Assembly (NCBI GenBank): GCA_028564705.1
Contig: JAPXFQ010002747.1
Location: 310,001-374,000 of the forward strand
DNA: 64,000 bases
Direction of reading: 5' to 3'
Source of the DNA: Apricaphanius iberus
Lineage: Eukaryota; Chordata; Actinopteri; Cyprinodontiformes; Aphaniidae
In this document: positions 12,385 through 17,014 of the stretch, in pieces
Layout: each line of letters starts with the position of its first letter
How positions within the stretch are numbered: the first letter of the stretch is position 1
Translations under genes and position numbers: made by a program
Notes under the pieces: generated by a model
Databases searched by the model: none
What the model was told of the DNA's origin: nothing
The model's input: only the letters and a program-made list of their open reading frames with translations

Positions 12385-15300
12385 TTAGGATGGGAACTGG
12401 CAGGCCGGCTCCCATGTCTCCTCCCAGATTTTTCCACTGTAAGTAAAAGTAGTGCAAAATCACATTAGAACAGGGAAAAATGGTAAGCCATTTTTACATA
12501 AAAGTTTCACAGCATATATATTTGCTTTAGTATTGTACAGTCTTGTATTATATTGTTTTTACACAAACATATACATATATAGTGCTCGACGCAATGTAAC
12601 AGATACACATCAGCCAGTCTCATCTATAAAGTCATAGAAAGTAAACTAGCCTGATTGCAGCTTACAGCTCATGAAAACCAAGAATTTCAAAATATTGTCT
12701 TCTTGACCAGTTCCCACATATTTTCTATGGGGTTCAAATGAGATGAGTTAAGCACAACAATACCATGGTAAGCAAACCAGTTACAAGCAGTTTTGGCACT
12801 GTGGCAGGTGCTGAGTCCTGCTCAGCTTGTCTGCTCTAAAATCTCCTGGTAGAAGGCCGCATTGACTCTGACAGTGTACATGAAAATTCTCTCAAGGCTG
12901 CCGTCATCCTTGTTTGTTGGAAAACGTGTGTGTTACAATATACGTTCCAATCTGTATCCACTACATATGAGATGGTTAAAAGTGGAAACAGAAAAGACAT
13001 GTATGAAGGCAATATATCAATATAAACCAGTACTTACCATGCAGAGCAAGGTAGCCATCTAACTCGTACTTCGGCTCGCCCCTACAGAAAGACACATAGA
13101 TATAATCAGGCTTGGAATTTTAGGGGCAAGGCCACTTGGCCTTCAATTGGGCATATTTGACGGGGGCACAAAGACCACACGTCAGGTAACCAAGGGAAAA
13201 GTTTACTGTACAGCAGGCTACATAAACATGATCAAAGTTGTATTTAGCCTATTCACAGCAGTAGAACTGCATCACTATATGAAACATTACAAAAACATGA
13301 AACATGACACATTAAATAGACATGTAAATCATCTGATTTTAATATTTACAGATATCTAGGCTGTATGTAACATTTATTTTCTATTTGATTGTTTTGACAG
13401 GCCATAGGCTAAATAAAAATCGCAAAGCAGAATATTGAAAGAAGGGGGCACCAAGGCCACAGTGGCCTATTTCAAAGGGTCATCCTGCAAGGGGCCATGG
13501 CTGTGTGGCCGCCGTAAAAATCCAACCCTACTTATAATACATGGATAAGGAACAAGAATATCCTAAGTTGGTAACCACTTGGTCAGTGTTTTCTGATGTT
13601 AAATGCCAGATGAGTCAGAGACAATGGAAAGATGATCAGACAGCCCAATGAAAAATATATTTTCTATATCTTACCTCATTCATCCTCCTTTCAAGGATGG
13701 TATCATAGATAAATACCTTCTGCCTACTACATTTCCGGCAACCTTAAATTACAAAAAAGAAAATATTAATACATTTTTCATAAAATCTGGGGGAAAACTT
13801 GGTTCTTGAACTTTGGAAATGTCAGAACAAGCAACAAAAACACAGCTAAATAACTAAAGAATGTATTAGCCATCAAATTCAGTGAGTTCATGGCTTAAAT
13901 GTAGCCTAATTATCCTGAGGGTTTCTTTATTTCATGACTAATAATTACAAAAAAGGGAAATTCATACATAGTGTGCTAAGACCCCAGTTCACTTACACTT
14001 TCTTTTTTTGGGAGGCGGGGGTTCGGCCAGGGCCGGGGTCTGAGACTGGGGCTGAGGCCCGGGCTGAGGCTGGGGCTGGGGCTGGCGCTGAGGCTGGGGC
14101 TCATCCAACACAGGATATAAATCTAAAAAATAAAATTGAGGCTGGGGCTGGGGCTGAGGCTGAGGCTGGGGCTGAGGCTGGGGCTGTGGCTGGGGCTGGG
14201 GCTGAGGCTGAGGCTGGGGCTGGGGCTGAGGCTGGGGCTGGGGCTGGGGCTGAGGCTGAGGCTGGGGCTGAGGCTGGGGCTGTGGCTGGGGCTGGGGCTG
14301 AGGCTGAGGCTGGGGCTGGGGCTGAGGCTGGGGCTGGGGCTGGGGCTGAGGCTGAGGCTGGGGCTGGGGCTGGGGCTGAGGCTGGGGCTGAGGCTGAGGC
14401 TGAGGCTGAGGGTGGAGGTGGTTCCCTAGAATATTAAATATGTAAGATAATTTATGATATGTACACATCAGCAAACGAAAAACTTTAAAACTGTCACAAC
14501 TTTTACTTGACACAAATCCTACCTTCTTTGAGCAAAACATAATTGTAGGCCTTTTTTATGCTGGCCACAAGTTTCTGGTTATCCTCAGTGGGTGGCAGAT
14601 GGGTCACCACATCAGCCACCCACTTTCCAGAGGCTTTCTCCCTCCTGGCATACAGCAAAATTGGGGCATAGCCCAATGCACTTAATTTTTTCACCTGTAA
14701 TAAATAAATGTAGATAAGCAAACATTAGTTTTTCCAACTGCATTATTCTTCCATCATATTGAAAAGAAAATTGCATCAAATACATTACAGCTACTGTTCT
14801 TAATATGCAGGTACACAAATAACATGATCAATCTTAACAGCTTTTCTCTCTTAGAAACAACATTACATATGTACTCTATACCAGTGGTTCTCAAAGTGGG
14901 GTACACCACTCATGGCCAAGGGGTCCACAAAACAATTTGCTTTGAATGTTAAAGTTGTGCTTTATCGATGAAAAATGCTTATCAATGACAAGGTAATAAT
15001 CTAGAATCTTGTTATAGGAACTTGATTCTAAATGTGCTAATGACTCAAAACATTAACATTTAACTTTTCTGTGATTATGACTAATCAGATCAATCTGTTG
15101 TGAATCACTTCTAGTAGTTAGCGATATGGGAGGGGGGACTTTTGAAATAGTCTTCCCTCCACAATAAGGGAATCCCCCACATACTGTGTTTTTAAGGACA
15201 ACTAAAAAAATGGCGCAGAACAAATCAAAATTGCGATTACAAACTAGACTTGAGACTAATTGAACACAACTTTTTATTGCATTATTCCTGTCTGGGTCTG

Positions 15301-17014
15301 GTGTCCTTCTGATTGTGTAATTTATTGTGCTGTGTGTAGTGTCTCTTCTTTTCATATCTTTTCTATTTAGTTATTAGGAACAGATGCAAATTAGCAGCTT
15401 TGCCAAATTCCAGCATGTTTACAGAGATGTTTAAATATTGATGTTCATAAATGTGCACTGCCCCTATCCAAAAAAAAGTGTCTGCCAAATCCCAAAACCA
15501 TAACCGTATCGATTGGAAACATACAAAACAAAATATGCTAACAAAAATGCATTTTGACTGGACTCCCTCTTGATGGCCATCTATCCACCTGATTTAAACA
15601 CTCTCTACCTGTCTCTCCCCACAGCAAATGTAGCTTGGGGGACAAACAGAAACCGTCCTTTGGGAATGCCACCAACCAACGTAACATAGCCAACCGCTCT
15701 ACAGAACCTGGTCTCAATCCTACTCCGGTAGATATGGTTGAATCCCTTCCACTCTTTAACGCAACATTATTATCTCCCCAAATGCTTTTTTAAGTTTTGG
15801 CTTTGATATAGGACACCTGGAATATAGTCACACATATGTTGCACACAGCATGGCTATCACGCATGTCCTGAGGTATTTTGCCACGTCAGTCATGCACTTT
15901 CTCTAAAATGAACGGAAGGCACTATTAGTGTGATTTGTAATATTCATATGTAGGGGTGGGTGGTAGTGCAAGCCTTTTATCTACTCACATAATCATGCAA
16001 GACTGGCTTTATAGTGACTGGATCTGAATTCTGGTATCTGCCTTTAGCAGAGAGTTCAGTAGCATGCATAGGTTTTGTTTTTTTACAACGTAGCCGGTTT
16101 TGTATGTCAATAAATGGACATAAGTGCCTGGTCAATAAGAAAGTCTATTCCATGCATGTCAGGCAAATGACAAAGAACTAAAAATCATATGATACACCAA
16201 ATCCATCTATGCCTACCTCAAATTAATTCACTAACAGATTAAACGTCTTTTTGTAAAATTAGGTCCTATCACACGATATTAATTAAAGTGAAGCAAATCA
16301 TTAATGCTTAATGAAATATGAGCTTTTGTACTTACTGCAATATGGGCAGAGTCCACCACTCTTCCAGCGTTCCTGTTTCTCAGGACCCCTTCTCCCCACT
16401 TCCTGTCCAGGGACACTGTTTTGGCCTTTAGTTTGCCTTTCTTTGGCAGAGCATTAAAACAGGAACTGCAGGTTTTTCTGCTCACCTGGGTTGATAAAAG
16501 TATACCAAAGTGAGAATTCTGATCCACAGTCAAATAGAAGAAGTACAATAAAGGATACAGAGATTAATTTGGCTGTACACAGGAAAGAGGCACAAATGAA
16601 GCACAACGCAATTCTGAATATTTGTCTCTGGATTGACACAAGATTATCCAGAGTTTAAGTACACAACAGATGGCAAAGGAAAGATAATCATACAGTGAAA
16701 GTGGCAGAGGTACGAGACACCCAAGCTACTCTAATCAATGATGCCCATGGCGTTTGGTGCAAAACAAGCTATCACAATTTATGTCAATCCAAACATCTTA
16801 TATTATCCCTGTTTTGGTATGCAGTACAGATATCATACATAGTAATTTTGTAGGAGCATACTTTGGTGTCCACGTGACCTACTAATGAGAAATGTAGAAC
16901 ATTAAAACCACGTATTGGAATATTGGATAAAGGTCCAAATGCTCTATTCCACTTTTCCCTCACCTGGTTAGGTGCTTGGCAGGAGGGGCAGGGCCTAGAG
17001 ATTTTTTTAGTCAT
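12385..17014 (-). CDS. Transposon accessory protein: zinc ribbon, Pro-Gln repeat, chromodomain-like
   Basis: Seven coding exons on the minus strand with consistent phases: 17014-16964, 16485-16336, 14694-14523, 14425-13997, 13742-13675, 13081-13038, 12436-12385; 966 nt, 321 aa, stop TAA. A non-coding first exon probably ends at 17903 in the right inverted repeat, and the ATG exon opens at 17022 behind a TG-rich acceptor. Residues 9-26 form a zinc ribbon (C9-x2-C12-x10-C23-x2-C26). Residues 68-125 are a well-formed globular block I do not recognise. Residues 130-221 are 46 Pro-Gln pairs. PPPPKKRK (260-267) looks like a nuclear signal. Residues 277-315 (VFIYDTILERR ... EVRVRW ... ETWEP) match the chromodomain pattern, split over three exons, with C269-x2-C272 before and C302-x2-C305 inside. 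Role is inferred: a nuclear, chromatin-reading partner of the KDZ transposase. The chromodomain call could be wrong and the four cysteines may instead define a treble-clef-like zinc finger. Confidence 0.72.
12650..12960 (-). pseudogene. Tc1/mariner transposase relic
   Basis: On the minus strand one frame carries a short stretch ending LNPIENMWELVKKT, the classic motif before the last catalytic residue of Tc1 transposases, preceded by an NAAFYQEIL-like stretch and a CHSAKTA segment where QQDNAPxHxA is expected. An internal stop and a deletion make it dead. It lies in the last intron of the accessory gene. Confidence 0.6.
14137..14412. repeat. Coding minisatellite (GGCTGG/GGCTGA hexamers)
   Basis: Forty-six hexamers of the form GGCTGG, GGCTGA or GGCTGT in the plus sense encode uninterrupted Pro-Gln on the minus strand within exon 4 of the accessory gene. 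A second, shorter run follows at about 14035-14100. Every other frame is also open here, which explains overlapping open frames on the plus strand that are not genes. Confidence 0.9.
14881..14960 (+). repeat. hAT-like terminus fragment
   Basis: CAGTGGTTCTCAAAGTGGGG is the typical 5' end of non-autonomous hAT elements of vertebrates. It sits in intron 2 of the accessory gene. I did not find the opposite end, so its extent is unknown. Confidence 0.4.

What the first reader, a model, noticed from the sequence alone, without database searches (positions are those of the whole stretch)
12385..17014. Second transposon gene: zinc ribbon plus Pro-Gln repeat plus chromodomain-like protein
Seven exons with matching phases give a 321-aa frame that no single long open frame reveals. 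The C-terminal pattern VFIYDTILERR...EVRVRW...TWEP fits a chromodomain with CxxC pairs (C269/C272 and C302/C305), spread over three exons. A chromatin-reading module encoded by a cut-and-paste DNA transposon would suggest targeted integration or heterochromatin evasion, as chromodomains do in some Ty3 elements. This is the best candidate here for an undescribed system.
Basis: partly seen in the sequence, partly recalled or inferred. Interest (0 to 1): 0.9.

Follow-up and report, generated by a model that had tools for sequence, protein, structure and literature searches.

The report
Fish transposon's zinc-chromodomain helper gene
A jumping gene in a fish genome carries, besides its transposase, a second conserved gene whose protein is predicted to end in a zinc-bound relative of the chromodomain, the module cells use to read marks on histones, and would likely use it to steer or shield the jumping gene on chromatin.

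Summary
Seven exons with GT-AG introns give the 321-aa frame. The gene lies inside one 15,745-bp KDZ transposon (2759-18503) with 109-bp identical inverted repeats, CA..TG ends and a 7-bp target duplication. Three more copies with both ends have their own 7-bp duplications; a diverged KDZ family carries the same gene pair. Homologues occur in many teleosts; in two species the pair has consecutive gene numbers.

The protein has an N-terminal C4 zinc ribbon, a Pro-Gln linker of varying length, and a C-terminal domain that resembles chromodomains: Pfam Chromo matches 10 of 10 members (best E 2.4e-4, 14.9-21.4 bits, cut-off 25.1), and all 50 listed Foldseek rows are chromodomains. The likeness survives masking the cysteines; that to TFIIS-type zinc ribbons does not. 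It is not canonical: a CxxC..CxxC pair is added, a cysteine sits at the third cage position, the C-terminal helix is missing.

Best reading: a two-gene KDZ element with a predicted zinc-stapled chromodomain helper. Histone binding, targeting or anti-silencing are inferred. New variant of a known kind.

The parts
2752..2758 (.). 7-bp target-site duplication GGCTGTC, left
2759..2867 (+). left terminal inverted repeat, 109 bp identical to the right one, begins CA
3529..3851 (.). 323-bp stretch present in the window copy and absent from the five other copies read there (C867, C749, C426, C103, C1116)
3991..9306 (+). KDZ transposase gene, at least 12 exons (CxC3 and KDZ domains, B-box-like N-terminal zinc region)
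16964..17014 (-). second gene, exon 1 (start codon, C9 and C12)
   Evidence: C9 and C12 in 53 of 56 distinct rows
16336..16485 (-). second gene, exon 2 (C23 and C26 of the zinc ribbon; start of the helical part)
   Evidence: C23 and C26 in 56 of 56 distinct rows
14523..14694 (-). second gene, exon 3 (predicted helix-strand-strand-helix part of the N domain)
13997..14425 (-). second gene, exon 4 (Pro-Gln repeat; symmetric phase 1-1; 333 to 527 nt in the other copies; absent from some fish gene models)
13675..13742 (-). second gene, exon 5 (C269, C272, predicted first strand with F278)
13038..13081 (-). second gene, exon 6 (predicted second strand, W299, C302)
12385..12436 (-). second gene, exon 7 (C305 completed at the exon junction, W309, TWEP motif, stop)
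18395..18503 (-). right terminal inverted repeat, ends TG
18504..18510 (.). 7-bp target-site duplication GGCTGTC, right

Best explanation
This is a two-gene KDZ cut-and-paste transposon whose second gene encodes a conserved zinc-ribbon protein that is predicted to end in a zinc-stapled variant chromodomain and would likely act as the element's chromatin-binding helper. Shown: both genes sit between matching inverted repeats and 7-bp target duplications, in two element families of this genome, and neighbour each other by gene number in two other fish; the cysteines and chromodomain-like residues are conserved. Predicted: the C-terminal 55 residues form a three-stranded chromo sheet in which C269, C272, C302 and C305 hold one zinc, so that the N-terminal arm is pinned to the loop after the second strand. 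Inferred: F278 and W299 are two walls of a methyl-lysine cage and zinc ligand C302 takes the place of the third. Inferred and untested: the N-terminal zinc ribbon and alpha/beta domain bind the transposase or the element's ends, the Pro-Gln stretch is a flexible tether, the basic cluster before the C domain imports the protein, and the chromodomain docks the complex on modified chromatin to choose where the element lands.
For: Element limits and duplications; second family with CA..TG ends and 7-bp duplication CTCAGTC. Pairing: Leuciscus PO909_026856/PO909_026857 and Xyrauchen LOC127654291/LOC127654290; distances of the two proteins correlate over 9 same-contig pairs (r 0.61, p 0.0018). Domain: Chromo is the only Pfam match of the isolated window domain at E up to 10 (E 0.0082) and matches 10 of 10 members (E 0.026 to 2.4e-4); 23 of 24 and 43 of 48 PDB sequence matches are chromodomains; all 50 listed Foldseek rows in both PDB searches; 50 of 50 and 49 of 50 listed VIA rows are chromodomains, chromoshadow domains or chromodomain-bearing proteins (cpSRP43, Chd1); profile score 36.2 against 200 shuffles with maximum 20.0, rising to 41.2 with cysteines masked. 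Conservation over the 42 rows that cover the second half: aromatic at 278 in 40, W299 in 41, C302 in 42, C305 in 41, W309 in 40.
Confidence: 0.5

Rival explanations
1. The C domain is a type-2 zinc ribbon of the TFIIS kind that converged on a chromo-like look; it would bind DNA or the transposase, and no histone reading is involved.
For: CxxC..CxxC spacing, the CG..W motif after the last cysteine, profile score 25.2 against shuffle maximum 21.2; Zn_ribbon_4 in 5 of 10 members; the published finding that type-2 ribbons and chromo/SH3 barrels resemble each other (PMC5906684, abstract and passages).
Against: With cysteines masked the ribbon score falls to 8.5 while the chromo score rises to 41.2; Chromo beats ribbons in count and E-value; the listed structural neighbours are chromodomains.
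Confidence: 0.2
2. The second protein counters silencing: the variant chromodomain would compete with HP1-like proteins or recruit an activity to the element's own copies, as VANC proteins do for VANDAL elements by another route.
For: Chromo-like fold; near-identical copies in the genome; VANC precedent (PMC5735166 and PMC10398659, starts of abstracts in the search listing).
Against: No enzyme domain stands out in the Pfam scans (25 of 29 families shown in the latter); no methylation or expression data.
Confidence: 0.2
3. The protein works like the Myb-like second protein of Harbinger: nuclear import and binding of the element's ends, with the C domain serving only protein contacts.
For: Two-gene layout and parallel divergence as in fish Harbinger (PMC9179366, passages); basic cluster before the C domain; N-terminal zinc ribbon.
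Against: Does not explain why the chromo-like residues are among the best conserved of the C domain; no Myb model listed for the N domain.
Confidence: 0.25
4. A host gene caught by chance inside one transposon copy, or a false gene model.
For: Database names such as proteoglycan 4-like or P200-like show that annotators did not see it as a transposon gene.
Against: Present in 4 of 4 first-family copies with both ends and in a second TIR-bounded family; beside the transposase by gene number in two other fish; conserved frame and exon limits.
Confidence: 0.02

Closest known systems
KDZ (Kyakuja-Dileera-Zisupton) DNA transposons
   Same: KDZ and CxC3 domains in the transposase; long inverted repeats; large size; accessory genes are known in fungal KDZ elements, such as TET/JBP (PMC12730594, passages).
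   Different: The accessory gene here is a zinc-ribbon and chromodomain-like protein. Target duplication is 7 bp, as reported for two fungal Kyakuja families (which lack TIRs), not 8 bp as for Zisupton (PMC12730594).
HP1/Polycomb/CBX chromodomains
   Same: Sequence and predicted three-stranded sheet; conserved aromatic at 278, W299, TWEP.
   Different: Adds a CxxC..CxxC site and about four residues in the loop after the second strand; lacks the C-terminal helix; cysteine at the third cage position (cage positions recalled from HP1).
Chromodomains of Ty3/Gypsy chromoviruses and related elements
   Same: A mobile element encoding a chromatin-reader module at a protein C-terminus (PMC12477816, passages).
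   Different: There it is fused to the integrase of a retrotransposon; here it is a separate protein of a DNA transposon.
Harbinger transposase plus Myb-like protein
   Same: Two-gene DNA transposon of fish with co-diverging proteins (PMC9179366, passages).
   Different: Other transposase family; the helper has zinc ribbon, repeat and chromo-like parts, and no Myb model was listed.
CxC7 cysteine cluster of fish Zisupton and F-box::CxC7 genes
   Same: Small cysteine domain linked to fish KDZ elements (PMC12062965, section 12 and passages).
   Different: No CxC7 match was listed for the window protein or its C domain or for the 10 C-domain members, all at E up to 10; CxC7 lies at residues 1333-1393 of the Zisupton protein itself.
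Type-2 zinc ribbons (TFIIS, RPB9) and the Cren7 convergence
   Same: Cysteine spacing and a three-stranded sheet (PMC5906684, passages).
   Different: Similarity rests on the cysteines alone.

Membership tests
KDZ transposon superfamily | KDZ transposase domain | tested here: met
   PF18758 E 3.3e-18 on one window exon piece, E 4.1e-34 on the close relative P0027
KDZ transposon superfamily | terminal inverted repeats with target-site duplication around both genes | tested here: met
   7-bp duplications at 4 of 4 first-family copies with both ends; one copy of the second family likewise
Zisupton | 8-bp target-site duplication | tested here: not met
   7 bp in 5 of 5 insertions of two families
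Kyakuja | 7-bp target duplication, CA..TG ends | tested here: met
   against PMC12730594; at C867 and C749 one end has a changed or missing base
Kyakuja | no terminal inverted repeats, as reported for two fungal families | tested here: not met
   109-bp and 256-bp inverted repeats
Kyakuja | position in a KDZ transposase tree | not tested
   no tree with reference Kyakuja, Dileera and Zisupton sequences was made
Chromodomain (PF00385) | profile match at the curated cut-off | tested here: not met
   14.9 to 21.4 bits in 10 of 10 cut-out members, window domain 17.0, cut-off 25.1
Chromodomain (PF00385) | three-stranded chromo sheet | tested here: met
   predicted only, on relative P0006: pLDDT 69-90 over the sheet, Foldseek and VIA neighbours
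Chromodomain (PF00385) | C-terminal helix | tested here: not met
   window protein ends six residues after TWEP; tails of relatives are not conserved; no helix of four or more residues there in the model
Chromodomain (PF00385) | three-aromatic methyl-lysine cage | tested here: not met
   two of three: aromatic at 278 in 40 of 42, W299 in 41 of 42, cysteine at 302 in 42 of 42 rows; cage positions recalled
Chromodomain (PF00385) | binding of methylated histone tails | not testable with these tools
   needs protein
Type-2 zinc ribbon | two cysteine knuckles around a beta sheet | tested here: met
   four aligned cysteines in 26 of 30 distinct rows, some of them with CxC in place of the first CxxC; sheet predicted only
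Type-2 zinc ribbon | sequence similarity beyond the cysteines | tested here: not met
   profile score 8.5 with cysteines masked; mean of 200 shuffles 9.4
N-terminal zinc ribbon (DZR-like) | two CxxC pairs about 10 residues apart | tested here: met
   C9, C12 in 53 of 56, C23, C26 in 56 of 56 distinct rows; DZR in 13 of 13 members, best E 0.001; window piece 17.6 bits, cut-off 27.3

The most novel reading that the evidence does not exclude
A zinc-stapled chromodomain: an HP1-like histone reader in which a Cys4 zinc site replaces one wall of the methyl-lysine cage and pins the peptide-binding arm, carried as a stand-alone targeting or anti-silencing subunit by a widespread lineage of fish cut-and-paste transposons.
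Probability: 0.4. Interest if true: 0.85.

Novelty: new variant of a known kind. Interest (0 to 1): 0.66.

Why it matters
Chromodomains are known to guide some retrotransposons; a separate chromodomain-like protein in a DNA transposon would let one ask directly whether cut-and-paste elements also read chromatin to choose sites or escape silencing. The zinc-bound variant would also bear on how chromo folds and zinc ribbons relate. The element has near-identical copies and an apparently open transposase, so the question can be tested in fish cells.

Tried and rejected

Viral contigs: 15 pattern matches, none a relative. Viral structure library: best row a Tetraselmis virus chromo-domain protein, E 0.015, none at 0.001. 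Rfam: none at gathering score in 2500-18800. NCBIfam: nothing near cut-off for the two pieces. DUF678 matched one of 26 members at E 0.054 and was dropped as noise.

Coverage and dropped rows: the C-domain profile was run on 107 listed proteins plus the window protein; 55 domain rows came back, two of them from P0147; 13 rows do not reach residues 300-311 and were left out of the residue counts. The transposase search listed the best 120 of 248. A first table of shared contigs had left out part of the listing and gave 12 of 105 pairs; the full table (114 transposase and 79 second-gene entries with a named species and contig) gives 12 of 145 same-species pairs in 9 of 26 species, with 5.8 expected if every genome had 25 equal chromosomes. 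Five of the 12 come from two transposases (three Onychostoma genes, two Chanodichthys isoforms). This count alone is weak; the consecutive numbers in two species carry the argument. The correlation used one hand-picked second-gene protein per species and does not control for host relatedness.

Six of the ten first-family copies lie at contig ends. They are at least 99.94% identical over about 10 kb, all stop 3 bp inside the right TIR, and the two checked break off at element position 319 on the left, so they look like assembly copies of one repeat unit and are not counted as independent insertions. In C426, C922 and C1352 the repeat exon shifts frame as assembled; this was left as found. The genome search calls its own counts of repeats lower bounds.

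Literature: no listing or passage that I saw describes a chromodomain or a second gene of this kind in KDZ elements (searches; passages). The two founding papers, Bohne 2012 and Iyer 2014, are not held, nor is Gao 2008, so earlier mention cannot be excluded. UniRef already names two relatives 'Chromo domain-containing protein' (P0010, P0192).
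Full report
What is there. The seven-exon gene of the finding is rebuilt exactly on the minus strand, 17014 to 12385, with six GT-AG introns, 966 nt and 321 residues. It lies in a DNA transposon of 15,745 bp, 2759-18503: the ends read CA..TG, the first 109 bp of the two inverted repeats are identical, and both flanks carry GGCTGTC. The other gene of the element, on the plus strand at about 3991-9306, is a KDZ transposase: window pieces match CxC3 (E 2.8e-10) and KDZ (E 3.3e-18). 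An 878-aa uninterrupted relative, 96% identical to the typed query, sits on a 3,270-base contig, which looks like a spliced transcript. Tblastn of this relative gives 12 segments in the window element, 11 of them open; the twelfth, 852 bases for 186 residues, probably runs across introns.

Copies in the same genome. The genome was held as G000 (1.195 Gb). Besides the window copy, three copies have both inverted repeats: C867, C749 (shortened inside) and C426. Their printed flanks carry GCTGTGC, ATCTTTG and GTTCAGG, so 4 of 4 copies with both ends show separate 7-bp duplications; one end each of C867 and C749 has a changed or missing base. Six more copies sit at contig ends, all cut 3 bp inside the right repeat and nearly identical, and are treated as assembly copies. 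Exons 1, 2, 3 and 5 of the second gene are identical to the window's in 9 of 9 other copies and exons 6 and 7 in 8 of 9; C749 has the same protein. The Pro-Gln exon is 429 nt in the window and 333, 369, 371 or 527 nt elsewhere; in C426, C922 and C1352 it shifts the frame as assembled. Its phases are symmetric, so leaving it out keeps the frame; gene models of Phoxinus (P0006), Perca (P0008) and Arctogadus (P0009) lack it.

A second family. Six loci carry a paralogue at about 46% identity; three were read. At C618 the element runs 207357-221936, with 256-bp repeats (98.8% identical), CAACAC..GTGTTG ends and duplication CTCAGTC. It holds a KDZ transposase and the second gene, here in the same direction, whereas in the window the two genes converge. 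The second gene's C domain is split over three exons at the same places. Over 173 aligned codons, positions 1, 2, 3 differ at 0.376, 0.329, 0.561 (third against the others, p about 1e-5), as expected under selection for the protein. Of the five relatives compared there, transposase P0053 (71-95% by segment) and second gene P0208 (70-78%) match closely, and both come from Morone contigs of the same length.

Other fish. The first search gave 26 relatives, the profile search 99 at E up to 1; the named ones are all fish, from cyprinids to cichlids, perch, notothenioids, a gadid and catfish. Leuciscus waleckii PO909_026856 (transposase) and PO909_026857 (second gene), and Xyrauchen LOC127654291 and LOC127654290, have consecutive numbers. 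Over the full listings 12 of 145 same-species pairs share a contig, in 9 of 26 species, against 5.8 expected if each genome had 25 equal chromosomes, which is weak by itself. Over nine same-contig pairs the distances of the two proteins correlate (r 0.61, p 0.0018), without control for host relatedness.

The N domain. C9, C12 are present in 53 of 56 and C23, C26 in 56 of 56 distinct rows. The DZR zinc ribbon model matches 13 of 13 members, best E 0.001; the window piece has 17.6 bits against a cut-off of 27.3. The second structure model (P0006 with 61 sequences, mean pLDDT 76.7, pTM 0.39; the first, with 26, had 54.6 and 0.28) shows helices followed by strand-strand-helix. A weak resemblance to NRF1 has no sequence support.

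Chromodomain or zinc ribbon. Type-2 ribbons and chromo barrels are known to resemble each other (PMC5906684, abstract and passages), so the two were set against each other. The family profile of 30 distinct rows scored 36.2 with 12 recalled chromodomains and 25.2 with 7 recalled TFIIS-type ribbons; 200 column shuffles reached at most 20.0 and 21.2. The reversed profile scored 9.3 and 16.1. With cysteines masked the scores were 41.2 and 8.5. The two reference sets scored 6.9 with each other. The chromodomain likeness therefore does not depend on the cysteines, and the ribbon likeness consists of them. In the second family the call is closer: Chromo E 0.06, beside zinc-protein and other models at 0.04-0.07 and TFIIS at 0.97.

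What is unusual. In 26 of 30 distinct rows four cysteines are aligned, some rows having CxC in place of the first CxxC; P0147, P0188, P0013 and P0205 lack one or more. C269/C272 precede the first strand, C302/C305 follow the second. In the alignment to HP1-type domains residue 278 stands at the first cage aromatic (aromatic in 40 of 42 rows), W299 at the second (41 of 42) and C302 at the third (cysteine in 42 of 42); the cage positions are recalled. W309, inside the added loop, is kept in 40 of 42. The window protein ends six residues after TWEP, so the usual C-terminal helix is missing. By these tests it is a chromodomain-like variant, not a canonical member.

How it likely works (inferred). 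A zinc ion would tie the arm before the first strand to the loop after the second, next to the presumed binding groove. A basic cluster before the domain could act as import signal. The N domain would hold the transposase or the element's ends, the Pro-Gln stretch would be a tether, and the C domain would dock on chromatin. Harbinger elements of fish give the precedent for a two-protein system with co-divergence (PMC9179366, passages); chromodomain-bearing retrotransposons for chromatin reading (PMC12477816, passages); VANC proteins for element-encoded anti-silencing (starts of abstracts). Which of these applies is open; targeting is given first, with modest confidence.

Placement. The transposase places the element in KDZ. 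The 7-bp duplication and CA..TG ends agree with two fungal Kyakuja families, which however lack inverted repeats, and not with the 8 bp given for Zisupton (PMC12730594, passages); it is filed under neither. No match to CxC7 was listed. The listings and passages seen in the held library show no earlier description of such a second gene, but the founding KDZ papers could not be read.

Noticed in passing
3529-3851: 323-bp stretch in the window copy, upstream of the transposase start, that the five other copies read there lack.
   Followed up: partly
G000 contigs C103, C1116, C1728, C705, C922, C1352: Six contigs end exactly 3 bp inside the right inverted repeat of nearly identical element copies; the two checked (C103, C1116) break off at element position 319 into different flanks. 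Probably an assembly-graph artefact.
   Followed up: partly
G000 C618:207357-221936 (L028, L023, L029): Second KDZ family with the same gene pair in tandem orientation, 256-bp inverted repeats and a 7-bp duplication.
   Followed up: yes
G000 C553, C110, C86, C153, C237: Further second-gene paralogues at 31-37% identity; at C110 a transposase-like exon lies within 1 kb on the other strand.
   Followed up: no
19659-20678, 22817-24082, 32164-33143, 40571-40929, 42922-43935: Array of repeated copies that by eye look like G-protein-coupled receptors (no family search made); the copy at 32 kb is split over two frames and the copy at 40.6 kb is fragmentary and contains a hairpin with 48-bp arms (40871-40975).
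   Followed up: no
44519-44935: Inverted repeat of 109-bp arms, 78% complementary, 199 bp apart.
   Followed up: no
29840-32080 and 58335-58889: Fragments that by eye look like a LINE reverse transcriptase and endonuclease, and a retroelement RNase H (no family search made).
   Followed up: no
53815-55437: Single long open frame that by eye looks like a UDP-glucuronosyltransferase (no family search made).
   Followed up: no
P0010, P0178, P0192 and others: Database names of relatives range from 'Heterochromatin protein 1' and 'Chromo domain-containing protein' to 'proteoglycan 4-like' and 'mucin-2-like'; the latter probably reflect the repeat.
   Followed up: partly
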